Assembly: GCA_016193465.1 (NCBI GenBank)
Contig: JACPSE010000067.1
Coordinates: forward strand, 1 to 33,445
Length of the DNA stretch: 33,445 nucleotides
Direction: 5' to 3'
Source: Deltaproteobacteria bacterium
GTDB lineage: Bacteria > Desulfobacterota > Binatia > UBA9968
Under the pieces are notes generated by a model, which saw only the letters and a program-made list of their open reading frames with translations, made no database searches and was not told where the DNA came from. A program made the translations under genes and the position numbers. Every line of letters begins with the position of its first letter. The first letter of the stretch is position 1. This document shows positions 5,668 through 29,222 of this stretch, piece by piece.

Positions 5668-6789
5668 TTATTTGCCTGCGGCCTTCGGGAAGCCGTAAGC
5701 TTCAAACACCTTCGCCTGCCATCCACCAAAGTTTGCCTGATCCTCCCAGCTTACCACGGAAAGCTTCTTGCCCCTGAGCTCCTGCTCTACAACGCCGCCA
5801 CGGACGTAAACAGAGGAAGAGACAGGCTCGTGTTCATCTGCCAGCTTTTGTGCCTCAGGGCTGGCCATCCATTCGAACCATAGAAGCGCAGCATTAAGGT
5901 GTTGAGCAGAAGCCCGGATCGCTAACTCTAGAGCCGGCAAAATGGGAACAGGCTCCACAATGACGTATTGCAGGCTGCCAGAAACATCCTTTTCTTGAGC
6001 CCGTTTGAGAGTGTGAAAGTAAGGTCCAAGCATCATGGGAATCTCCCCGGCCATAATGGAAGTAATGACCCTGGTGCCTCCCCTCGCCCAAATGGGCTGT
6101 TGAGCCGCTACGCTGCGAGCAAAATCCAAAGTCTTTTCCATGCCCCACGCCGGCACAAGGGCGGCGACTTCCCTTGAACGGATATCAGCGGCGAACTTTC
6201 TCCCTTTGAAGTCCGGCTTAAGGAAATCTTCCCAACTCTTCGGTAGCTGGCCAGCAGATAAGAGATTCTTGTTGTAAGCAGTGATCACGAAGCGGCTGAG
6301 GGGGGCCACAATATTCCGGTTCCTGGAATCGATCATCTTTGGAGGAATAGCCAGCACCCCATGTTCTGCCATACCTAAAAGGTCAATCCTCTCAAGATAG
6401 GGTAGATAATCACCGAGGAAGTCGCGCGACAGATTAACTATGTCCCAGTCCTTGGCCCTGCCAGCCTGCAACTCTAGGATGAATCGCCGCGCCGCATCAG
6501 TGCCGGTGATCTCCTGAATATGAAGATTGATAAAGGGATATCTCCGCGTGAAGGCGGCAATTGAGGCTTTGATGTTCGGAGGCTCCATCTCGGCTAGAAC
6601 TCGGAGTTGGCCCTCCTTCTTGGCTTTGGTGACGATTTCGTCGTGGCCGGTGATAAAAATGAATCCCTTGGCCTCTGCCTCTCCTCTAGCTTTCAGCAAG
6701 TCAGGACCTGGTGCGGCAGCAAAAACAATTGAACCCACAGCCCACAGCTCGAAAATAGCAAGCAGAGCGGCCATCTTAAAAATCTTCAT
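5668..6789 (-). CDS. ABC transporter substrate-binding protein, paralog C
   Basis: A 373-residue SBP of the A/I/J/K subgroup. ATG 6789 has GAGGAGC upstream. The signal peptide is about 1-23 (AVGSIVFA|AAP). Landmarks: EAEAKG (37-42), TKAKKEGQLRVL, ITGTDAARR, LLGMAEHGVL, TAYNKNLL, WEDFLKPDFKG, LVPAWGMEKT, QQPIWARG, pocket segment GPYFHT, EWMASPEAQKLADEHEP, SSVYVRGG and terminal EAYGFPKAAGK. The first of the usual DIRPTEIAAL positions reads DIRSREVAAL. Its signal-peptide region shares a perfect 56-base block (6689-6744) with paralog E (10184-10239), although the bodies are diverged, which suggests recombination. Its 3' end closely resembles remnant D. An NMT1-like gene lies 80 bases upstream on the same strand, so the two could be co-transcribed. 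Confidence 0.88.
   Translation of the reverse strand: MKIFKMAALLAIFELWAVGSIVFAAAPGPDLLKARGEAEAKGFIFITGHDEIVTKAKKEGQLRVLAEMEPPNIKASIAAFTRRYPFINLHIQEITGTDAARRFILELQAGRAKDWDIVNLSRDFLGDYLPYLERIDLLGMAEHGVLAIPPKMIDSRNRNIVAPLSRFVITAYNKNLLSAGQLPKSWEDFLKPDFKGRKFAADIRSREVAALVPAWGMEKTLDFARSVAAQQPIWARGGTRVITSIMAGEIPMMLGPYFHTLKRAQEKDVSGSLQYVIVEPVPILPALELAIRASAQHLNAALLWFEWMASPEAQKLADEHEPVSSSVYVRGGVVEQELRGKKLSVVSWEDQANFGGWQAKVFEAYGFPKAAGK
6689..6744. repeat. 56-base block identical to 10184-10239 (SBP C and SBP E 5' regions)
   Basis: These 56 bases cover the end of the signal peptide and the first mature residues of SBP C. They are identical, third codon positions included, to 10184-10239 in SBP E, while flanking sequence and most of the two genes differ clearly. 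A recent gene conversion or unequal crossover is the simplest explanation. Confidence 0.85.
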
Positions 6790-6869
6790 TCTGCTCCTCT
6801 GTTTCTGAGCTTCTACGTAACTCGTTTTACTTTCCCCTGTCGGCCTGAGGTTTGTTCCTATGCCTATCT

Positions 6870-7832: not shown

Positions 7833-7880
7833 TGTCCTCCCTCCTAATTTTTCCCGAGCCGGTCCTGATTACTTCGATCA

Positions 7881-8150
7881 TTATTTGCCTGCGGCCTTAG
7901 GGAAGCCATAGGCCTCTACTATCTTCGCCTGCCACTTCTCCATGTTCTGGACATGCTCCCAGCTCACCTCAGAAAGCTTTTTGCCCCTAAGCTCCTGCTC
8001 CACGGCGTCACCACGGACGTAAACAGAGGATGCCAAAGGCTCGTGCTCCAAGAAAAGCAGCGCTGCGTAAGGGTGAGACGCCGCTCCAACTACAAATTCC
8101 GTCTCCAGAAATCGCACTGATACCGGCTCGACTGGACTTGGTGTTTCCAT
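7881..8150 (-). pseudogene. SBP remnant D (C-terminal quarter with internal deletion)
   Basis: This 89-codon frame is the C-terminal part of the SBP family: it contains PVEPVSVRF, SHPYAALLFLEHEP, SSVYVRGDAVEQELRGKK and the terminal EAYGFPKAAGK. Relative to intact paralogs about 14 residues (the WMASPEAQ..ADE helix) are missing in frame, fusing FLE directly to HEP. No signal peptide or N-terminal lobe is present. It starts only 16 bases downstream of the metallo-hydrolase stop, on the same strand. It ends almost like paralog C, so it probably derives from a C-like gene. It is non-functional as an SBP. Confidence 0.85.
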
Positions 8151-9174: not shown

Positions 9175-10284
9175 CTATCTCGCCTTGGGAAAGCCAAGGG
9201 CCTCAACGGCCATCTTTATCCATCTGGTCGTGTGCTCAAAAGTGTCCATAACCGCCAGTTTCTTTCCCCTGGTTGCCTTTTCCAGTTCTGAACCTGGCGC
9301 ATAGATCGAGGACTTGAGCGGCTCAATCTCATCCAGGATTCTCTGAGCTTCCGGGCTGGCCAGAAATTCCAGGAAGAGAATGGCAGCGTAGGGACGGGGA
9401 GCATTGTTCACAATGGCCTGTTGCACAGACAGACGAACGGGTATCGGCTCAATCAATTTACATACAAGAACCTTCCGGCGATCCCGCTTCTGAGCACTGG
9501 CGCAGGAATGGTAGTTGGTGAGCTGAAAGAGGCCATACTCTCCGGCGGTCATCGAGGCGAGCGCCCGGGTGTGCCCCCTAGCCCAGACAGGCTGCTGCTC
9601 CCTGAGCCCCCGGGCGTAGTTCACCATCCACTCCTCCCCCAACCCTGCGGCAAGAGGGGCAAAATTGAGCAGGCGGATGTCAACAAGAAACTTCCTGCCC
9701 TTAAACTCGGGCTTTAGGAAGTCCTCCCAGGTACTGGGTACCCGGTCTTCCGAAATCAGCTCCCCGTTGTAGGCAGTGGAACCAAGGGCGCTCCCCGCAT
9801 GGATGATGCTGCGGTGTCTAGGGTCGATCATCTTCGGCGGGATCCGTAGTACACCGTGCTCCGCCATTCCCAGGAGGTCGATTTTTTTCGCGTGAACGGC
9901 AAAGCTGTCATAGAGGTCCGTCGACACCCTAAATACATCCCAGTCTCTCGCAGTACCCGCCTGCAACTCCAGGAGGAAGCGCTGAACGGCATCGGTACCG
10001 GTGATCTCCTCAAGGGAGATGTCAATAAAAGGGTATTGCTGCTTGAATGCTTTTACTATATGGGGGTACGTGTCCGGCTCCATCGCGCTCATCACCCGAA
10101 CTCTACCCTCTTTTTTCGCCTTGGCTACGATCTCGTCACGGCGGGTCTCAAAGATAAACCCCTTTGCCTCCGCCTCTCCTCTGGCTTTCAGCAAGTCAGG
10201 ACCTGGTGCGGCAGCAAAAACAATTGAACCCACAGCCCAGAACTCCAAAATAGACAGCAGAGTGGCCAGCTTAAAAAACTTCAT
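9175..10284 (-). CDS. ABC transporter substrate-binding protein, paralog E
   Basis: A 369-residue SBP. ATG 10284 has GGAGGAGCG upstream; a 27-codon extension to 10365 would run into SBP F and has no SD. The signal peptide is about 1-23, almost identical to that of paralog C. Landmarks: EAEAKG, AKAKKEGRVRVM, ITGTDAVQR, DLLGMAEHGVL, WEDFLKPEFKG, QQPVWARGHTRAL, pocket segment LTNYHSC, EFLASPEAQRILDEIEP and terminal EALGFPKAR. The middle has its own block, GLGEEWMVNYARG, in place of the LVPAWGLEKTLDFAR block; only paralog L shares 'GEEWMVNYA'. It lies 37 bases downstream of SBP F on the same strand, so F and E are probably co-transcribed. Its different pocket region suggests a different ligand. 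Confidence 0.87.
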   Translation of the reverse strand: MKFFKLATLLSILEFWAVGSIVFAAAPGPDLLKARGEAEAKGFIFETRRDEIVAKAKKEGRVRVMSAMEPDTYPHIVKAFKQQYPFIDISLEEITGTDAVQRFLLELQAGTARDWDVFRVSTDLYDSFAVHAKKIDLLGMAEHGVLRIPPKMIDPRHRSIIHAGSALGSTAYNGELISEDRVPSTWEDFLKPEFKGRKFLVDIRLLNFAPLAAGLGEEWMVNYARGLREQQPVWARGHTRALASMTAGEYGLFQLTNYHSCASAQKRDRRKVLVCKLIEPIPVRLSVQQAIVNNAPRPYAAILFLEFLASPEAQRILDEIEPLKSSIYAPGSELEKATRGKKLAVMDTFEHTTRWIKMAVEALGFPKAR

Positions 10285-10321
10285 CTCGCTCCTCCTTCTC
10301 CAAGCTTCGACACGGCTCGTC

Positions 10322-11461
10322 TTATCTTCCCTTATCGACCTTTGGGAAGCCGTAGGCCTCCACAACTTTTGCCTGGTAGTCGGACATCCTTGTGAAGTGG
10401 TCCCAGTTCACTAAAGAAAATTTTTTCCCTTTGGTCAGCTTTTCCAGGGTGGAGCCAGGAACAAAAACTGAGGCGCCGTAAGGCTCATGTTTATCCGCTA
10501 TCCTCTGTCCTTGAGGGGAGGCCTGAAACTCCAACCACAGAAGCGCGGCATAAGGATGTTCTGAAGTGCTTAAAACCGCTGCAGCCTCAGTAAGCCTAGT
10601 GGGAACGGGCTCCAAGATCTTGTAGCCCAACGTCCCGGCAGGATCTTTCTCCACAGCCCTCATGGCGGTATGGAAGCCCGGTCCGATGAATAGGGCATAT
10701 TCTCCTGCGGCCATTACGGTGAGCGTCCGGGTTGCCCCTCGCACCCATATGGGCTGCTGGGCGGCTAACTTACGCGCAAAATCCAGGGTCCTTTCCAATC
10801 CCCAGGCCGGCACAAGGGCAGCGATCTCCGTGGGGCGGACATCGGCGACGAATTTTCTTCCCTTAAACTCTGGCTTGAGAAAGTCTTCCCAACTATCAGG
10901 AACCTTCTCAGGGGCGATGAGCTTCTTGCTGAACGCGACCACCTGAATGCCACTGGTGACGGCTATGATGTTTCGGTTGGCTGGGTCTACAATCTGAGCC
11001 GGGATGCGAAGCACTCCGTGCGTCGCCATGCCCAGGATATCAAACTTCTTTAAATAGGGCGGAAACTCATTATAGAAGTCTGTGGAGACATGAGTTCCAT
11101 CCCAACCCTTGGCCCTTCCTGTTTTCATCTCCAATATAAAGCGCTGAATGGCCTCGGTTCCTGTGGTCTCCTCAACGTGGACATCGAGGAATGGATACTC
11201 AGCCTTGAAGGCGGCCGCCATAACCTTAATCGTCTCGGTCTCCAGGGAGCTTAGGGCCCGCATTCTCCCTTCCTTTTTAGCCTTGGCTACGATCTCGTCA
11301 CGGCTGGTCTCAAAGATGAATCCCTTGGTCTCAGCCTCTTGCCTGGCCTTCAGCAAGGCAGGGCTGGGCGAGGCGGCAAATAGATCAGAACCAGCCAACC
11401 AGCACACGATAATAGAGTTGATAAAAAAGAAAGTCGCTATCTTGAAAAAAAACGCCTTCAT
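10322..11461 (-). CDS. ABC transporter substrate-binding protein, paralog F (mosaic)
   Basis: A 379-residue SBP. ATG 11461 has an AGGAGGTG SD. The signal peptide is about 1-29 (LFA|ASP); Cys20 lies within the hydrophobic core and is not a lipobox. It carries EAETKG (instead of EAEAKG), AKAKKEGRMRAL, TTGTEAIQR, YNEFPPYLKKFDILGM, WEDFLKPEFKG, QQPIWVRGATRTL, pocket segment GPGFHTA, EFQASPQGQRIADKHEP and EAYGFPKV. The N-terminal and C-terminal parts follow the B/L subgroup, but residues about 207-250 (DVRPTEIAALVPAWGLER and beyond) are of the A/J/K subgroup, so the gene looks chimeric. It is preceded by remnant G, whose frame ends in a TGA overlapping this ATG, and followed by SBP E. Confidence 0.88.
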   Translation of the reverse strand: MKAFFFKIATFFFINSIIVCWLAGSDLFAASPSPALLKARQEAETKGFIFETSRDEIVAKAKKEGRMRALSSLETETIKVMAAAFKAEYPFLDVHVEETTGTEAIQRFILEMKTGRAKGWDGTHVSTDFYNEFPPYLKKFDILGMATHGVLRIPAQIVDPANRNIIAVTSGIQVVAFSKKLIAPEKVPDSWEDFLKPEFKGRKFVADVRPTEIAALVPAWGLERTLDFARKLAAQQPIWVRGATRTLTVMAAGEYALFIGPGFHTAMRAVEKDPAGTLGYKILEPVPTRLTEAAAVLSTSEHPYAALLWLEFQASPQGQRIADKHEPYGASVFVPGSTLEKLTKGKKFSLVNWDHFTRMSDYQAKVVEAYGFPKVDKGR

Positions 11462-15645: not shown

Positions 15646-15735
15646 CCAGGGGCAAGGCCCGTAGTAAGCTGGAAAAACTATCAGCAATATAGAGCAGTGG
15701 CAGTTCAGGATCCTTGAAGCCGTCAAGTGGCCTGG
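15646..15735 (+). pseudogene. SBP remnant H (C-terminal tail with frameshift)
   Basis: Directly after the E1 beta stop, CAGGGGCAAG and then ACTATCAGCA..TATAGAGCAGTGGCAG align with the end of SBP A (2437-2510, encoding RGKK, WEDYQHIGQWQSKIVEAF). After removing one extra A the frame reads IEQWQ, then ILEA. An inserted base and changes in the first part (GCCCGTAGTAAGCTGG) break the frame. It is in the same orientation as the E1 genes and corresponds to roughly SBP residues 338-365. It is a non-coding relic. Confidence 0.75.
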
Positions 15736-20681: not shown

Positions 20682-21809
20682 ATGAAAGCTGCTTTTTCCA
20701 AGTTATGGCCGATAATCGTGCTCGTCATGTTCCTTGGGAGTGTCTCTTTTGCGGCATCGCCCAGCCCTGCGCTGCTCAAGGCTAAGAAGAAGGAAGCCGA
20801 GGCCAAGGGCTATATTTTCTACCCGGACCATGATGAGATTATGGCCAAGGCCAAGACCGAGGGGAAGCTCCGTGCCATTGTTAATATGAGAACTCCCAAC
20901 ATTAAGGCCTCCGGCGCCGCCTTCAGGAAGCAATACCCGTTTATCGACCTGCAGCTTGAGGAAATCACCGGGACGGCAGCTAACCAGCGGTTTTTCCTTG
21001 AGGTTAAAAGCGGAATGGCCAAGGACTGGGATGTCATCCATATCTCCACTGATGTCCGCAGCGAGCTCGTACCTCATCTTTTAAAGGTCGATATCCAAGG
21101 GATGGCGGAACAGAAGGTCCTGCAGATTCCTCCTCCGATGATTGATCCCACAAACCACAGCGTTGTGGCCTTCTCCAGCCGTTTTCAGATTACTGCCTAT
21201 AACAAGAATCTGGTTCCCGCAAACCAGCTTCCAAAGGTTTGGGAAGATCTTCTGAGGCCGGAGTTCAAGGGCAAGAAATTTGCTGTGGACATTCGTCCGA
21301 CAGAGGTAGCGGCTCTGGTGCCCGCCTGGGGTTTGGAGAAGACGCTTGACTTTGCCCGGAAGGTAGCAGCCCAGCAGCCTATCTGGGTTCGGGGCTCGAT
21401 TGGGACGATGACCGCTATGCTAGCTGGGGAGGTTCCGATGATGGTCGGGCCCAACTTTCACAACATGAAAGAGATTCAGGCGAAGGACCGCGTTGGCGTC
21501 CTGCAATATGTTATCCTCGAGCCTGTCCCCTTAAGGTTCGGCAATCAGCAGGCAATTCTGGCCACATCACAGCATCCTTATGCCGCGCTCCTCTGGCTCG
21601 AATGGATGGCGAGTCCCGAGGCACAGAAGATAACGGATGAGCGGGAACCTCTGGCATCTTCGGTTTACGTGCGCGGCGGTACAGTAGAGCAGGAGCTCAG
21701 GGGCAAGAAGCTCTCCGTTGTGGGCTGGGAGTTCGAGAGGCATATGGAAGAGTGGCAGACGCAGGTCGTCGGGGCCTATGGTTTTCCAAAGGCTGAGTCG
21801 AGGAAGTAG
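20682..21809 (+). CDS. ABC transporter substrate-binding protein, paralog J
   Basis: A 375-residue SBP starting at ATG 20682 with GAGGAGGAGC upstream. The signal peptide is about 1-24 (VSFA|ASP). Landmarks: KKEAEAKGYIF, AKAKTEGKLRAI, ITGTAANQR, DIQGM, TAYNKNLVPANQLPK, WEDLLRPEFKG, LVPAWGLEKTLDFARK, QQPIWVRGS, pocket segment GPNFHNM, EWMASPEAQKITDE, SSVYVRGG and GAYGFPKAE. The LLGM motif reads IQGM. Two 41-base blocks are identical to paralog A (21192-21232 with 1928-1968, and 21324-21364 with 2060-2100). It is translated with the PhtD-like gene 14 bases upstream. The ligand is unknown but is probably related to that of paralog A, given the same partner gene. Confidence 0.88.
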   Translation: MKAAFSKLWPIIVLVMFLGSVSFAASPSPALLKAKKKEAEAKGYIFYPDHDEIMAKAKTEGKLRAIVNMRTPNIKASGAAFRKQYPFIDLQLEEITGTAANQRFFLEVKSGMAKDWDVIHISTDVRSELVPHLLKVDIQGMAEQKVLQIPPPMIDPTNHSVVAFSSRFQITAYNKNLVPANQLPKVWEDLLRPEFKGKKFAVDIRPTEVAALVPAWGLEKTLDFARKVAAQQPIWVRGSIGTMTAMLAGEVPMMVGPNFHNMKEIQAKDRVGVLQYVILEPVPLRFGNQQAILATSQHPYAALLWLEWMASPEAQKITDEREPLASSVYVRGGTVEQELRGKKLSVVGWEFERHMEEWQTQVVGAYGFPKAESRK

Positions 21810-23446: not shown

Positions 23447-23489
23447 TCCCTCTTATTACAAGAGGGCCGAGGATAACAATGGTGGAGAG

Positions 23490-25706
23490 TTGGAGCGGGT
23501 AGACATTCGGGCAAAGATAACCGGACAGGCTCTTTACACCGAAGACCTTCCATTGCCGGCGGGCACGCTTTTCTGTGCAATTCTGCGCAGTCCCTACCCT
23601 CATGCCCGGATTCGCTCTATGAACGTTGAGAAGGCTAAAGGCCTTGCCGGAGTTCTTTCCGTGCTGACAAGGGATAACCTGACGGGCATGAAGTCGTATG
23701 AGCATCGGTCCCAGCCGCTTGTAGTGACAGACAAAGTTCGTTTTCAGGGTGAGGCAATAGGGGCGGTGGCAGCGGAGAGTTTGGCGATTGCTCAAGAGGC
23801 TGTGGAAATGATTGAGGTCGAGTATGAGGAATTGCCGGCTGTTTTCGACGTCAGGGAGGCGGCGGAGCCAGGTGCGCCGCTGGTGCATGAGGAGCGGGGG
23901 AGCAATTTTTTTGGCGATTTCAGGATTGCTTGGGGCGACATGGAAGAAGGGTTTCGGGAGTCGGACCGGACCTTTGAAGGGAGCTATTTTTTTCCTACGG
24001 TTTTTCACTATCCGATAGAGAACATCGGCGTATGCATCGCGGAGATGCGCGGCGGCGAGATTGAGCTTGTGGCGCCTGTGCAGCACGTCTTTAGTGGCAA
24101 GCGGGAGTTGGTGGGGCTTTTTGGGGTAGAGCCGGATAATGTGCGCATACGGATGTCCTATGTTGGGGGAGGTTTTGGGTCGAAGGAGGTGAAGCCTGAG
24201 CACGCCATTGCACTTTGGTTATCGCGGGAAACAGGCAGGCCGGTTATGTTTATCCCTTCGGCGGAGGACAGTTTTAAGACCGGCGTTCGTCATTCGATGG
24301 TGTGGCGTGCGAAGACAGGGGTGAAGTTGGATGGGACGTTGGTAGCTCAGGACGTTGAGCTGTTAGTGGATAAAGGGGCTTATGGGGAAGCCAAGGGGGC
24401 TGCCGTTCGAGGGGCATCGCTTGCCTGGGGGCCATATCGTATTCCTCATTTGCGCGTTGTTGCCCATTCTTATTACACGAACAAGGTACCGGCGGGGGCC
24501 TTTCGCGCGGTAGGGAGGGCGCAGACTACTTGGGGATTTGAATCGCACTATGACATGATAGCGCGGGAGTTGGGGATAGATCCGATGGAGTTTCGGCTGA
24601 AGAATTTTTATCGGCGTGGGGATCAGGTATTTGAGGGGACCGGGCCGTTTGATTCTGACATGGATGATCTGCTCTCGCGGGCGGTGCGTGCCATTGGTTG
24701 GGACGGGAGGTCAAAGCGGGTAGGGACAAAAAAGATGGCGCCGGAGGTGGAGTCCAAACTTCTGCGGGGCAACGGGATGTCAGTGACGTTTCGCCATGGT
24801 TACTCCGGGACCAGCGATGCCTGGGTGACGGTCACGGTGGATCGCAGCGGGGTTGTGAAGGTTCGGCATGCGGGGGTGGAGATTGGGCAGGGGGTTTACA
24901 CCATGCTTGCCCGGGTGGCGGCTGAGACTTTGGGCATCCCTGACAGCCAGGTGCAGGTCACTCATCCGGATACAAACAGCCCCTACTTTGACGGCGTCGG
25001 GAGTTCGCGTTGCACCGTCTCGTTGGGGAATGCGGCCCAGCGGGCGTGTGAGGATTTGAAGCGGGAGCTTCGGGAGGTAGCAGCGAGGGCGAAGGGCGGG
25101 AAGGCGGAGGATTGGCGCTTCGAGGGTGGACGGCTCCTGTATGGGGAGCAGAGCTTTTCTCTGGGCGAATTAGTGGCTGCTGAGGGCGCATCCCTCGTGG
25201 TGATGGGAAAAGGCTCGTTCGGGACTCCACGGTATAACAATCCCTGGCAGGGGGTAGTACCTCACTGGGAACTCAGCGCCGCGGTGGCCGAGGTGGAGGT
25301 GGACGCGGAGACGGGAAAGGTAAGTTTGCTGCAATATGCCAACGTGGCCGATGTGGGGAAGGCGATTCACCCCGTTGCCTGCAAAAGCCAGTTGGATGGT
25401 GGCGCGATTATGGGGCTGGGGAACACGTTTTATGAGGAGATTGTGTATCGGGACGGTCAAGTGGTCAACGCAGATCCTTTTCAGTATCGGCTTCCCCTGT
25501 TGCCCGACCTGCCGGAGAAGTTTTTTTCGTTGATGGTCGAGAATGGAGATGGCCCCGGTCCTATGGGATCGAAGGGCATGGGGCAGACGGCAGTGAGTCC
25601 GATCGCGCCGGCGGTGGCCAACGCCATTTATGAGGCCACAGGTGTGAGGATCACCGAGTTGCCCATCACTCCGGAGAAAGTGCTGCGGCTCCTGAGGAAG
25701 CTGTGA
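23490..25706 (+). CDS. Molybdenum hydroxylase large subunit (xanthine dehydrogenase/CoxL family), copy 1, frameshifted at its start
   Basis: The 738-residue frame is a molybdopterin-binding subunit: AKITGQALYTEDL (N-terminal ald_xan_dh domain), GGGFGSKEVKPEH (Moco loop), PAGAFRAVGRAQTTWGFESH, GVEIGQGVYTMLARVAAETL split across two helices, and GSKGMGQTAVSPIAPA near the end. Members hydroxylate heterocyclic or aromatic substrates or CO-type substrates. The catalytic Glu of the usual 'G.GE' motif is Gln (Q699). The best start by comparison with copy 2 is ATG 23479, but one T is missing after AGT, so that frame stops at once; TTG 23490 is the first codon of the open frame and has poor SD spacing. 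No FAD or 2Fe-2S subunit gene accompanies it. Long blocks are identical to copy 2. Confidence 0.82.
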   Translation: MERVDIRAKITGQALYTEDLPLPAGTLFCAILRSPYPHARIRSMNVEKAKGLAGVLSVLTRDNLTGMKSYEHRSQPLVVTDKVRFQGEAIGAVAAESLAIAQEAVEMIEVEYEELPAVFDVREAAEPGAPLVHEERGSNFFGDFRIAWGDMEEGFRESDRTFEGSYFFPTVFHYPIENIGVCIAEMRGGEIELVAPVQHVFSGKRELVGLFGVEPDNVRIRMSYVGGGFGSKEVKPEHAIALWLSRETGRPVMFIPSAEDSFKTGVRHSMVWRAKTGVKLDGTLVAQDVELLVDKGAYGEAKGAAVRGASLAWGPYRIPHLRVVAHSYYTNKVPAGAFRAVGRAQTTWGFESHYDMIARELGIDPMEFRLKNFYRRGDQVFEGTGPFDSDMDDLLSRAVRAIGWDGRSKRVGTKKMAPEVESKLLRGNGMSVTFRHGYSGTSDAWVTVTVDRSGVVKVRHAGVEIGQGVYTMLARVAAETLGIPDSQVQVTHPDTNSPYFDGVGSSRCTVSLGNAAQRACEDLKRELREVAARAKGGKAEDWRFEGGRLLYGEQSFSLGELVAAEGASLVVMGKGSFGTPRYNNPWQGVVPHWELSAAVAEVEVDAETGKVSLLQYANVADVGKAIHPVACKSQLDGGAIMGLGNTFYEEIVYRDGQVVNADPFQYRLPLLPDLPEKFFSLMVENGDGPGPMGSKGMGQTAVSPIAPAVANAIYEATGVRITELPITPEKVLRLLRKL
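24390..24747 (+). repeat. 358-base block nearly identical to 27906-28263 (gene conversion tract)
   Basis: Within the two molybdenum hydroxylase genes this block differs at only four positions, all synonymous, whereas adjacent coding sequence differs frequently. A second perfect tract of 131 bases links 25023-25153 with 28539-28669. The copies keep a constant offset of 3516 bases. Confidence 0.9.
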
Positions 25707-25709
25707 TTG

Positions 25710-25742
25710 CAAACCCGGCAGAAGATTGCTCAGATGTACTGA
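25710..25742 (+). pseudogene. Tail relic of a divergent-type SBP
   Basis: Just after the copy 1 stop, a frame reads QTRQKIAQMY and stops (TGA 25740-25742). It aligns with the end of the divergent SBP at 21927-22979 (EVRQKIAEMYLGK), at DNA level CGGCAGAAGATTGCTCAGATGTA against CGGCAGAAAATTGCTGAGATGTA, with single-base changes. All upstream parts of that SBP are missing. It marks a rearrangement junction between the copy 1 enzyme and SBP K. Confidence 0.65.
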
Positions 25743-25783
25743 GACAGATAGCGCGTCATTCCTTTGTGTGAAGGAGGTGCCCC

Positions 25784-26908
25784 GTGAAAACTGTTCTTCT
25801 CAAAGCGCTCGTCCTGTTTTTTATGTTTGGCTCCTTGTCCAGTCCTGCCGCCTTGGGCGCGGATAGCGCTGCTTTGCAGAAAGCGAAGAAAGAGGCCGAG
25901 GCGAAGGGCTACGCGTTCCTCACGGACCGCGACGAGATTGTCGCCAAGGCCAAAAAAGAAGGGCGACTCCGTGCTATTGGCAGCATGGAGAGCGCAACCA
26001 TTAAGGCCACCATGGCTGCTTTTACGAAGAGATACCCGTTTATTGACTTCTATTTTCAGGAGAGCACGGGATCGGATGCTGCCCAGAGGCTTCTTCTCGA
26101 GGTCAAAAGCGGGGTGGCTAAGGAGTGGGATGTCGTTGGACTCTCCACCGACTTCCGCACCGAATACATTCCCTATCTTTGGAAGGCTGATATCCTGGCG
26201 ATGGTGGAACGGGGAATCCTGCGGATACCTCCTCAGATGATAGATCCCAAACAACGCAACATTGCCTCCTTCCAGAGCCGCTTTGCGGTAACTGCCTATA
26301 ACAAGAATCTGATTCCTGCGAGCCAGCTCCCGAAGGTTTGGGAAGATCTTCTGAAACCTGAATTTAAGGGGAGAAAGCTGGCTCTGGACATTCGCCCTAC
26401 GGAGATCGCGGGGCTGGTGCCTGCATGGGGGTTGGAGAAGATGCTTGACTTTTCCAAGAAGATAGCAACCCAGAACCCTTTTTGGGTTCGGGGCGCGACC
26501 AGGACGCTGACTTCTGTTCTAGCTGGAGAGATTCCGATGATGGCGGGACCTAATTTCCACACCGTGAAAGGGGTTCAGGCAAAGGACCCTGCTGGAGTAC
26601 TCCAGTATGCTATCCTGGAGCCTGTCCCTCTGACCTTGGCCCTGCAGATGGGGATTCTGGCTGCCTCTCAGCATACCCACGCAGCGCTTCTCTTCTTTGA
26701 GTGGATGGCCAGTCCTGAAGCTCAGAAGATAGCGGATGAGAACGAGCCGATGAACTCGTCAGTTTATGTGCGCGGTGGTGCGGTGGAGCGGGAGCTTAAA
26801 GGGAAGAAGCTCTCTATTCCGAGCTGGGAGGACTATCAGCGTATAGGCGAATGGCAGTCCAAGGTCTTTGAGGCCTTCGGTTTTCCAAAGGCTGAGTTAA
26901 AGAAGTAG
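25784..26908 (+). CDS. ABC transporter substrate-binding protein, paralog K
   Basis: A 374-residue SBP with a GTG start at 25784, supported by a strong AAGGAGGTG four bases upstream. The signal peptide is about 1-25 (AALGA|DS). Landmarks: KKEAEAKGYAF, AKAKKEGRLRAI, STGSDAAQR (TGT is TGS), DILAM (for LLGM), TAYNKNLI, WEDLLKPEFKG, DIRPTEIAGLVPAWGLEK, pocket segment GPNFHTV, EWMASPEAQKIADENEP, SSVYVRGG and EAFGFPKAE. 'AAQQPIW' is replaced by 'ATQNPFW'. It belongs to the A/C/I/J subgroup. It lies between the two molybdenum hydroxylase genes, 77 bases after the first and 85 before the second, all on one strand, so it could serve either enzyme's substrate. Confidence 0.88.
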   Translation: MKTVLLKALVLFFMFGSLSSPAALGADSAALQKAKKEAEAKGYAFLTDRDEIVAKAKKEGRLRAIGSMESATIKATMAAFTKRYPFIDFYFQESTGSDAAQRLLLEVKSGVAKEWDVVGLSTDFRTEYIPYLWKADILAMVERGILRIPPQMIDPKQRNIASFQSRFAVTAYNKNLIPASQLPKVWEDLLKPEFKGRKLALDIRPTEIAGLVPAWGLEKMLDFSKKIATQNPFWVRGATRTLTSVLAGEIPMMAGPNFHTVKGVQAKDPAGVLQYAILEPVPLTLALQMGILAASQHTHAALLFFEWMASPEAQKIADENEPMNSSVYVRGGAVERELKGKKLSIPSWEDYQRIGEWQSKVFEAFGFPKAELKK

Positions 26909-26993
26909 GAGCTGCAATCGAATGGAAATAATCGCAAGTTCGCACCTCGGGTGGTAACAATCGCTCCGTTGTTGAGAAAAGGGTAACTGTGAC

Positions 26994-29222
26994 ATGGCGG
27001 AGAGTTTAGACCGTGTGGATATTCGGGCGAAGGTAACCGGGCAGGCCCTTTACACGGAAGATCTTTTATTACCGCCTGGCGCGCTCTTTTGTGCCATTTT
27101 GCGCAGTCCTTATTCTCACGCCCGCGTTCGTTCCATAAACATCGAAAAGGCGAAGCGGCTTCCTGGAGTTCTGGCTGTTCTCACGAGGGACCATCTCGGG
27201 GGCATGAGCTCTTACACGCATCGCTCTCAGCCGTTTATAGCCATGGGCAAAGTGCGATTTCAGGGTGAGCCGGTCGCCGGTGTGGCGGCAGAGAGTTTGG
27301 CCATTGCCGGAGAGGCGGTGGCATTGATCGAGGTGGAGTATGAGGAGTTGCCGGCGGTATTTGATGTGCGGGAGGCGAGGAAGCCGGATACTCCTTTGGT
27401 GCACGAGGAGCGGGGGGGCAATTTGGTGGGGGAGTTCAGGATCGGTTGGGGCGACATAGAAGAAGGGTTTCGGGAGTCGGACCGGACCTTTGAAGGGAGC
27501 TATTTTTTTCCTACGGTTTTTCACTATCCGATAGAGAACATCGGCGTATGCATCGCAAGCGTGCGCGGCGGCGAGATTGAGCTTGTGGCGCCTGTGCAGC
27601 ATCCCTTTAGTGGCAAGCGGGAGGTTGCGGAGTTGTTTGGGGTAGAGCCGGATAATGTGCGCATACGGATGTCCTATGTTGGGGGAGGTTTTGGGTCGAA
27701 GGAGGTGAAGCCTGAGCACATTATTGCGCTTTGTCTGGCGCGCCAGACAGGCAGGCCGGTTACGTTTATCCCGTCGGTAGAGGACAGTTTTAAGACCGGC
27801 GTTCGTCATTCGATGGTGTGGCGTGCGAAGACAGGGGTAAAGTCAGACGGAACTCTAATGGCCCTGGACATTGAACTGTCGGTGGACAAGGGGGCTTATG
27901 GCGGAGCCAAGGGGGCTGCCGTTCGAGGGGCATCGCTTGCCTGGGGGCCATATCGTATTCCTCATTTGCGCGTTGTTGCCCATTCTTATTACACGAACAA
28001 GGTGCCGGCGGGCGCCTTTCGCGCGGTAGGGAGGGCGCAGACTACTTGGGGATTTGAGTCGCACTATGACATGATAGCGCGGGAGTTGGGGATAGATCCG
28101 ATGGAGTTTCGGCTGAAGAATTTTTATCGGCGTGGGGATCAGGTATTTGAGGGGACCGGGCCGTTTGATTCTGACATGGACGATCTGCTCTCGCGGGCGG
28201 TGCGTGCCATTGGTTGGGACGGGAGGTCAAAGCGGGTAGGGACAAAAAAGATGGCGCCGGAGGCGGGATCGAAGGTTGTGCAAGGGAAAGGGATGGCCGT
28301 CTCGTTGCGCCATTGCTATTCCGGGACCAGCGATGCCTGGGTGACGGTCACGGTGGATCGCAGCGGGGTTGTGAAGGTTCGGCATGCGGGGGTGGAAATT
28401 GGCCAGGGGATTTACACCATGCTTGCCCGGGTGGCGGCTGAGACTTTGGGCATCCCTGACAGCCAGGTGCAGGTCACTCATCCGGATACAAACAACCCCT
28501 ACTTTGCGGGTGTTGGGAGCTCACGTTCAACGGTAACTTTGGGGAATGCGGCCCAGCGGGCGTGTGAGGATTTGAAGCGGGAGCTTCGGGAGGTAGCAGC
28601 GAGGGCGAAGGGCGGGAAGGCGGAGGATTGGCGCTTCGAGGGTGGACGGCTCCTGTATGGGGAGCAGAGTTTTTCTATAGGAGATATCGTGGCCGCGGAG
28701 GGAGCGTCGCTGGTGGTGATGGGGAAGGGATGGTTTGCTACTCCACGGTATAACAATCCCTGGCAGGGGGTGGTTCCTCACTGGAACCCGAGTGCCGCGG
28801 CGGCCGAGGTGGAGGTGGACGCGGAGACGGGAAAGGTAAGTTTGCTGCAATATGCCAACGTGGCCGATGTGGGCAAGGCGATTCACCCGCTTGCGTGTAG
28901 GGGACAGTTGGACGGTGGCGCCATTATGGGGCTGGGCAATACCTTTTATGAAGAGATGGTGTATCGGGACGGGCAGTTATTGAACGGGGATCCATTTCAG
29001 TATCGGCTTCCCCTGTTGCCCGACCTGCCGGAGAAGTTTTTTTCGTTGATGGTAGAGAATGGGGATGGGCCTGGTCCTATGGGGTCCAAGGCGACGGCGC
29101 AGGTGGCGGTGAGTCCGATAGCGCCGGCGGTGGCCAACGCCATTTATGAGGCGATTGGGGTGAGGATCACCGAGTTGCCCATCACTCCGGAGAAGGTGCT
29201 GCGGGCCTTAGGCAAGCTGTGA
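26994..29222 (+). CDS. Molybdenum hydroxylase large subunit (xanthine dehydrogenase/CoxL family), copy 2
   Basis: The 742-residue protein starts MAESLDRVDIRAKVTG at ATG 26994; the upstream AAAAGGG is a weak SD at a long spacing. Moco-domain motifs: GGGFGSK (230-236), GAFRAVGRAQTTWGFESH, MIARELGIDPMEFRLKNF, GVEIGQGIYTMLARVAAE and SPIAPAVANAIYEAIG, followed by LPITPEKVL. The end motif is GSKATAQ with Q703 where family members carry the catalytic Glu (usually KGxGE), so it is further degraded than in copy 1 (GMGQ). Without the electron-transfer subunits nearby it must borrow them, or has another role. It is 25 bases upstream of SBP L and probably co-transcribed with it. N-terminal 400 bases are diverged from copy 1, while later tracts are nearly identical. 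Confidence 0.87.
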   Translation: MAESLDRVDIRAKVTGQALYTEDLLLPPGALFCAILRSPYSHARVRSINIEKAKRLPGVLAVLTRDHLGGMSSYTHRSQPFIAMGKVRFQGEPVAGVAAESLAIAGEAVALIEVEYEELPAVFDVREARKPDTPLVHEERGGNLVGEFRIGWGDIEEGFRESDRTFEGSYFFPTVFHYPIENIGVCIASVRGGEIELVAPVQHPFSGKREVAELFGVEPDNVRIRMSYVGGGFGSKEVKPEHIIALCLARQTGRPVTFIPSVEDSFKTGVRHSMVWRAKTGVKSDGTLMALDIELSVDKGAYGGAKGAAVRGASLAWGPYRIPHLRVVAHSYYTNKVPAGAFRAVGRAQTTWGFESHYDMIARELGIDPMEFRLKNFYRRGDQVFEGTGPFDSDMDDLLSRAVRAIGWDGRSKRVGTKKMAPEAGSKVVQGKGMAVSLRHCYSGTSDAWVTVTVDRSGVVKVRHAGVEIGQGIYTMLARVAAETLGIPDSQVQVTHPDTNNPYFAGVGSSRSTVTLGNAAQRACEDLKRELREVAARAKGGKAEDWRFEGGRLLYGEQSFSIGDIVAAEGASLVVMGKGWFATPRYNNPWQGVVPHWNPSAAAAEVEVDAETGKVSLLQYANVADVGKAIHPLACRGQLDGGAIMGLGNTFYEEMVYRDGQLLNGDPFQYRLPLLPDLPEKFFSLMVENGDGPGPMGSKATAQVAVSPIAPAVANAIYEAIGVRITELPITPEKVLRALGKL

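What the first reader, a model, noticed from the sequence alone, without database searches (positions are those of the whole stretch)
23490..29222. Gene conversion between the two molybdenum hydroxylase large subunits
The two genes alternate between diverged stretches (N-terminal 400 bases, 24325-24389, 24748-24800) and near-identical tracts: 24390-24747 against 27906-28263 with four synonymous differences, and 25023-25153 against 28539-28669 with none. Identity extends to third codon positions, so selection on protein sequence does not explain it. Recent conversion between tandem copies is the natural reading.
Basis: seen in the sequence. Interest (0 to 1): 0.65.

Follow-up and report, generated by a model that had tools for sequence, protein, structure and literature searches.

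The report
Patchy gene conversion in twin genes
Two neighbouring copies of a molybdenum-enzyme gene in a little-known bacterium share many short stretches that appear to have been copied recently from one to the other, while the stretches between kept old differences; this is a clean but ordinary example of a known DNA-repair by-product.

Summary
Genes A (23490-25706) and B (26994-29222) align without gaps and alternate between identical tracts and islands about 25% different. Thirteen exact runs of 40-131 bases cover 1,051 bases; at the islands' divergence the longest chance run has a 99% limit of 35-37 bases. Synonymous difference is 1.5% in tracts and 59-62% elsewhere. Constraint is not the cause: the same columns are as diverged from the nearest homologues inside as outside tracts, and in trees only the A-B split shrinks to zero in tract columns. 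In 28 control pairs from relatives the clustering ratio is at most 1.30, against 2.48 for A-B. Recent patchy gene conversion between resident copies fits best; direction and number of events cannot be told from one assembled genome, and no reads were available. Beside it: A and B belong to a well-supported large-subunit clade with glutamine where the presumed active-site glutamate usually stands; in 5 of 8 loci fetched from relatives such a gene sits next to a glutamate-type copy. A's start codon region is damaged, and some neighbouring solute-binding-protein genes show weaker signs of exchange. The conversion is a known kind; the glutamine clade is the more interesting lead.

The parts
23490..25706 (+). 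Gene A, molybdenum-hydroxylase-type large subunit homologue, 738 aa from a TTG start
   Evidence: Pfam Ald_Xan_dh_C, MoCoBD_1, MoCoBD_2
26994..29222 (+). Gene B, its paralogue, 742 aa; aligns to A without gaps at an offset of 3516 from A's TTG on
23479..23489 (+). Former start of A: ATG matching B's ATG at 26994; A lacks one base after codon 4, so this ATG is out of frame
23490..23943 (+). Diverged 5' block of A (113 of 454 bases differ from 27006-27459); covers the whole hammerhead domain
23943..24040 (+). Identical tract, 98 bases (B 27459-27556)
24046..24085 (+). Identical run, 40 bases (B 27562-27601); just above the 99% chance limit
24120..24203 (+). Identical tract, 84 bases (B 27636-27719)
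24264..24322 (+). Identical tract, 59 bases (B 27780-27838)
24389..24747 (+). Near-identical tract, 359 bases, 4 synonymous differences (B 27905-28263)
24748..24803 (+). Diverged island between two tracts
24804..24978 (+). Near-identical tract, 175 bases, 3 differences (B 28320-28494)
25023..25153 (+). Longest identical tract, 131 bases (B 28539-28669)
25286..25357 (+). Identical tract, 72 bases (B 28802-28873)
25479..25537 (+). Identical tract, 59 bases (B 28995-29053)
25784..26908 (+). Solute-binding-protein gene lying between the two copies
   Evidence: Pfam SBP_bac_6 and SBP_bac_1

Best explanation
A and B are paralogues that arose after their lineage split from the nearest homologue found (in genome G015) and then diverged to about 60% synonymous difference. 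More recently, stretches of one copy were copied over the other by recombinational repair (ectopic gene conversion), resetting about half of the gene in many short tracts. The rest, including the first 454 bases and the last 29, kept the old difference. Shown: the mosaic, the reset of the A-B split in tract columns only, and the absence of a matching pattern in the relatives compared. Inferred: that the donor was the resident copy, that the event or events were non-reciprocal, and that patchiness came from several short events or from repair of a long mismatched duplex. Direction is not known.
For: Bimodal divergence: synonymous difference 0.620 in the 5' block, 0.586 in internal islands, 0.015 in tracts. 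The replacement-to-silent ratio is alike in the 5' block and the islands (0.210 and 0.232, Fisher p 0.80), so the islands look like leftover ancestral divergence, not selected spots. Outgroup codon identity is similar in and out of tracts. A-B divergence per 20 codons does not follow divergence in any of 8 other pairs tested (Spearman -0.11 to 0.27, p above 0.1 in all 8). Trees: in island columns A and B are sisters (support 0.997) with tips 0.215 and 0.127 and stem 0.149; in tract columns tips are 0 and the stem is 0.306, so total path length is kept and only the split was reset. Controls: clustering ratio 2.48 for A-B against 0.86-1.30 in 28 pairs among 8 relatives' genes. Nine of the 13 runs are 72 bases or more and two are 59, above the longest of 5,000 simulated maxima (47). 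Flanks beyond both gene ends show no match and both ends are diverged, as expected if two old copies were patched.
Against: Five of the 28 control pairs show clustering at p < 0.05, so the shuffle null is somewhat liberal. Only one control pair (G021-G011, silent difference 0.18) has an overall silent difference as low as A-B (0.21), and it gives 1.30 (p 0.01). The tracts were chosen by the same data that score them as identical. At 25% divergence recombination should be rare, and the longest chance run is only about 22 bases at the median and 29-32 at the 95% point. In Salmonella tuf conversion only 14 of 394 tracts were non-contiguous (my sum of Table 1 in PMC5485169, passages), so 13 runs need many events or a patchy process. 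No second strain, read data or close ortholog was found to confirm or polarise it.
Confidence: 0.85

Rival explanations
1. Recent duplication followed by import: A and B were near-identical new copies, and diverged pieces from a related strain were recombined into one of them, producing the islands.
For: A is slightly farther from outgroups than B outside tracts (aa identity to G015 0.577 against 0.601; tip 0.215 against 0.127), as expected if A received foreign pieces. Third-position G+C is a little lower in islands (0.631, 0.633) than in tracts (0.670, 0.676). Mosaic imports with short interspersed recipient stretches are known after transformation of Helicobacter pylori (PMC2582958, passages).
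Against: Both gene ends are diverged and both flanks do not match, whereas a recent duplication should carry identical sequence to its breakpoints. Many separate imports from one equally distant donor would be needed. Island G+C is the same in A and B, so neither looks foreign to the other.
Confidence: 0.09
2. Assembly or consensus artefact: short-read assembly merged similar stretches of two copies that really differ.
For: The genome has 238 contigs, no reads are held, and exact runs are at most 131 bases, within a 150-base read (assumed). Merging of near-identical paths could erase isolated differences.
Against: Isolated differences survive inside tracts (4 in 359 bases, 3 in 175). A collapsed repeat would normally break the contig, and swapping copies exchanges blocks but does not create identity (inference). 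Merging of near-identical paths should not turn 25% difference into none.
Confidence: 0.05
3. Nucleotide-level constraint (overlapping gene, RNA structure, codon choice) keeps the tracts identical.
For: None beyond the identity itself; overlapping genes and RNA structure were not examined on their own.
Against: Outgroup pairs are about as diverged at synonymous sites in tract columns as outside, and divergence profiles do not correlate.
Confidence: 0.01

Closest known systems
Gene conversion between tufA and tufB in Salmonella (PMC5485169; passages read)
   Same: Non-reciprocal copying between two paralogues in one bacterial chromosome, bounded by the gene
   Different: tuf copies differ at 12 positions and few tracts are non-contiguous; here the copies differ by about 25% outside tracts and there are 13 exact runs of 40 bases or more
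Interspersed recipient sequence in Helicobacter pylori imports (PMC2582958; passages read)
   Same: Donor and recipient patches alternate; mean interspersed length 82 bases
   Different: There the donor is foreign DNA of the same species taken up by transformation; here the likely donor is a resident paralogue
Mosaic transformation tracts in Neisseria meningitidis (PMC6321871; passages read)
   Same: Recombined stretches interspersed with non-recombined ones; four models proposed there
   Different: Experimental import, not paralogue exchange
4-hydroxybenzoyl-CoA reductase alpha subunit (PDB 1rm6, chain A)
   Same: Best solved-structure match to B by sequence over 8-738 (E 5.8e-92)
   Different: It has Glu aligned where A and B have Gln; B scores 444.5 bits against a cut-off of 994.55 for this enzyme's NCBIfam model

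Membership tests
Ectopic gene conversion between paralogues | Sharp alternation of near-identical and diverged tracts beyond chance | tested here: met
Ectopic gene conversion between paralogues | Identity not explained by slow evolution of the same columns in relatives | tested here: met
Ectopic gene conversion between paralogues | Non-reciprocal change, flanks unaffected | tested here: inconclusive
   Flanks of the two genes do not match, but without an unconverted relative reciprocal exchange and direction cannot be judged
Ectopic gene conversion between paralogues | Present in raw reads of the organism | not testable with these tools
   No reads held
Xanthine oxidase family (molybdenum hydroxylase) large subunit | Hammerhead and two molybdopterin-binding domains | tested here: met
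   both proteins above gathering scores
Xanthine oxidase family (molybdenum hydroxylase) large subunit | Active-site glutamate | tested here: not met
   Gln in A and B at the aligned position (B residue 709); Glu in 29 of 34 large subunits collected from this genome and in 1rm6. The role of the glutamate is described for bovine Glu1261 in PMC3624778 (passages); that this column is that residue rests on recalled motif knowledge, since the bovine match stops before it
Xanthine oxidase family (molybdenum hydroxylase) large subunit | [2Fe-2S] and FAD subunits encoded alongside | tested here: not met
   None of 26 Fer2_2 and 23 FAD_binding_5 matches in the genome lies on the window's contig C55; supply from elsewhere in the genome is not excluded

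The most novel reading that the evidence does not exclude
A and B are members of a large-subunit clade that has lost the usual active-site glutamate (Gln instead). The clade works as a second, non-canonical large subunit beside a glutamate-type partner in a four-gene molybdenum enzyme. In this genome it has been duplicated and its cofactor-binding core is kept alike by repeated patchy conversion, while the N-terminal domain is left free to diverge.
Probability: 0.15. Interest if true: 0.6.

Novelty: new member of a known kind. Interest (0 to 1): 0.32.

Why it matters
It is a clean natural case of patchy conversion between strongly diverged paralogues (about 25% apart), where homologous recombination is expected to be rare, in a lineage with few held relatives (35 genomes in its order). 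It also warns that whole-gene identities and trees of such paralogues mislead: A and B look 87% identical but are two things spliced together. The side lead, a conserved Glu-to-Gln clade often beside a Glu-type subunit, would matter more if its enzymology were worked out.

Tried and rejected
Constraint as the cause was tested with outgroups and rejected. Selection keeping the islands different was tested by comparing replacement-to-silent ratios of the islands and the 5' block: no difference. Exchange with a third copy: the next copy in the genome (C98, 56% at protein level) gave only weak or short DNA matches to A (425 bases at 66%, 233 at 67%, and two stretches of 32-41 bases at 94% and 83% in the neighbouring C98 gene). 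A closer ortholog to polarise the tracts was sought in 57 relatives, 394 further genomes of the phylum (at most 2 candidates per genome scored, E limit 1e-200) and 34 of the order, overlapping sets; the best is 61% in G015. Genome contigs gave 5 relatives, the best 50%. Literature, open-licence papers only: gene conversion with xanthine dehydrogenase and tandem gave 5 listed papers on other subjects by title and abstract start; Binatota with xanthine dehydrogenase gave none; bacterial intragenomic conversion gave 4 listed, not read; tandem duplicates with conversion in metagenome-assembled genomes gave none; molybdenum hydroxylase with active-site glutamate and glutamine gave 4 listed, not read, none on such a replacement by title. 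Not tested formally: the 7 isolated differences fall in two tracts (24389-24747 and 24804-24978) and none in the others, which hints at more than one event but depends on how tracts are cut.

One search was a faulty run (loci on the minus strand were not turned); only its start-codon lines for gene A are used, and one search replaces its comparisons. One search left out the first 70 and last 12 alignment columns.

Full report
What was claimed.

The genes. A (23490-25706) and B (26994-29222) carry the hammerhead domain and both molybdopterin-binding domains. They are the only copies at this similarity found in the genome; the next, on contig C98, is 56% identical to B at protein level. I collected 34 large subunits from this 4.5 Mb, 238-contig genome. 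A solute-binding-protein gene lies between A and B. The window is a whole contig (C55) rich in such genes. No permease domain was named among the 28 window proteins scanned with Pfam, two of which matched no family; smaller and overlapping reading frames were not scanned.

The mosaic. From A's TTG on, A and B align without gaps over 2,217 bases with 279 differences. A two-state model fits rates of 0.45% and 25.1% difference. It finds a first diverged block of 454 bases and then 15 low segments (1,109 bases, 2 differences as cut; one segment is only 2 bases) alternating with islands of 4 to 117 bases. Thirteen exact runs of 40 bases or more sum to 1,051 bases. If the whole gene were as diverged as its islands, its longest exact run would be 21-22 bases at the median, 35-37 at the 99% point and 47 in the largest of 5,000 simulations. 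So the low segments of 28 to 36 bases could be chance, the runs of 40 and 44 are doubtful taken singly, and the eleven of 59 bases or more are beyond the simulations. Silent codons cluster beyond all of 20,000 shuffles.

Not constraint. With seven hand-set tracts, A and the nearest homologue (G015, 61% identical to B) share 39.5% of synonymous codon choices in tracts, and B and G015 40.6%. Outside tracts the figures are 34.0% and 40.2%. Against C98a they are 36.4% and 38.5% in tracts, 37.6% and 35.2% outside. Divergence along A-B does not track divergence in any of 8 other pairs. Trees from the two sets of columns (14 genes) place A and B together beside G015 in both. The A and B tips are 0.215 and 0.127 in island columns and zero in tract columns, while the summed path to the outgroup stays about the same. 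So only the time of the A-B split changed.

Controls. The same run test on 28 pairs among 8 relatives' glutamine-type genes gives ratios of 0.86 to 1.30, against 2.48 for A-B; 5 of the 28 have p below 0.05. Only one of these pairs (G021-G011) has a silent difference as low as A-B, and it gives 1.30, p 0.01. The null is thus slightly liberal, but the A-B value lies well outside.

Age and mode. Synonymous difference is 0.620 in the 5' block, 0.586 in internal islands and 0.015 in tracts, with no replacement difference in tracts as cut. The islands and the 5' block have the same replacement-to-silent ratio, so the islands look like untouched old sequence, not sites held different by selection. 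Several short events, or one long mismatched duplex repaired in patches, would both fit. Patchy outcomes are documented for transformation in Helicobacter pylori (PMC2582958, passages) and Neisseria (PMC6321871, passages). tuf conversion in Salmonella is mostly contiguous (PMC5485169, passages). The 5' block covers the whole hammerhead domain (residues 11-116 of A) and the tracts lie mostly in the molybdopterin-binding domains; with one gene pair I cannot say whether that is chance.

Around it. Among 45 pairs of ten solute-binding-protein genes of the window, eight were retested with 20,000 shuffles. The two strongest are 5668-6789 with 9175-10365, which share a 5' stretch at 83-89% and fall to 42-69% beyond it (ratio 2.29, p 0.0001), and 1352-2545 with 20682-21809 (ratio 1.69, p 0.0005). 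They were picked from 45 pairs; multiplied by 45 their p-values are about 0.005 and 0.02. Over 49 such genes of the genome (9 of the window and 40 other high-scoring matches), p below 0.001 occurred in 3 of 49 same-contig pairs and 4 of 1,127 other pairs (Fisher p 0.002). The pairs are not independent, but exchange between neighbours seems more frequent.

The clade. A and B have Gln where 29 of the 34 large subunits have Glu; the other exceptions are C98a and C24 (Gln) and C98b (Asn). In a tree of 48 large subunits, 11 Gln-type genes (A, B, C98a and the eight below) form one clade with support 1.0, C98b joins it with 0.999, and C24 is separate. Context was fetched for 8 of the 11 relatives' matches listed; all eight loci (L051-L058) hold a Gln-type gene, and in five (L052, L053, L054, L057, L058) a Glu-type large subunit is its direct neighbour. 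These five Glu-type neighbours also form one clade (support 1.0), so the pair looks inherited as a unit. A [2Fe-2S] subunit was found by Pfam near the Gln-type gene in L051, L052, L053, L054, L056 and L057, and an FAD subunit in L051, L053, L054, L057 and L058; in L055 the three neighbours scanned matched no family. The role of the glutamate (Glu1261 in the bovine enzyme) is as described in PMC3624778 (passages); that the column is this residue rests on alignment and recalled motif knowledge. So A and B are homologues of molybdenum-hydroxylase large subunits, but I do not file them as working hydroxylases.

Organism. One relative of the same family, G014, has a contig of the same length (30,130) as VBKE01000334.1, titled Deltaproteobacteria bacterium isolate DP_1. 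I recall that such genomes are now placed in Binatota; no call shows it.

Verdict. It is a new example of a known process, of moderate interest.

Noticed in passing
window 25602-25604 (A) and 29118-29120 (B); loci L051-L058: The clade of A and B has Gln at the position of the usual active-site Glu; in 5 of 8 loci fetched from relatives the Gln-type large subunit lies next to a Glu-type one, each of the five with an FeS and/or FAD subunit nearby. Both partners form well-supported clades.
   Followed up: partly
window 23479-23492: Gene A lacks one base after codon 4 relative to B, so its original ATG is out of frame; the only ATG, GTG or TTG start left in frame near the 5' end is the TTG at 23490, with a poorly placed ribosome site. 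Damage or sequencing error.
   Followed up: partly
window 6611-6799 and 10106-10294: Two solute-binding-protein genes share a 5' stretch (about 85%) far more alike than the rest, suggesting exchange of the signal and N-terminal part.
   Followed up: partly
genome G000; loci L089-L128: 153 matches to one solute-binding-protein in the genome (150 of 221 candidates scored). The 25 least diverged pairs among 49 genes have synonymous differences of 0.17-0.24 and dN/dS of 0.52-1.08, against 0.07-0.12 for five pairs of relatives' large subunits: a young, fast-changing expansion. A larger expansion of another SBP family is described in Rhodoplanes (PMC5994714, abstract).
   Followed up: partly
window 7878-8045 and 15647-15717: Short stretches between called genes match the 3' ends of solute-binding-protein genes at about 80%, likely remnants of lost copies.
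   Followed up: no
genome G000: 34 large subunits collected but only 26 [2Fe-2S] and 23 FAD domain matches, so several large subunits seem to lack partner genes or share them.
   Followed up: no
L057:10158-12431 (G014): This Gln-type large subunit lacks the 11 residues just before the Gln position that the other Gln-type genes from relatives carry (GDGPGPFGSKG in most).
   Followed up: no
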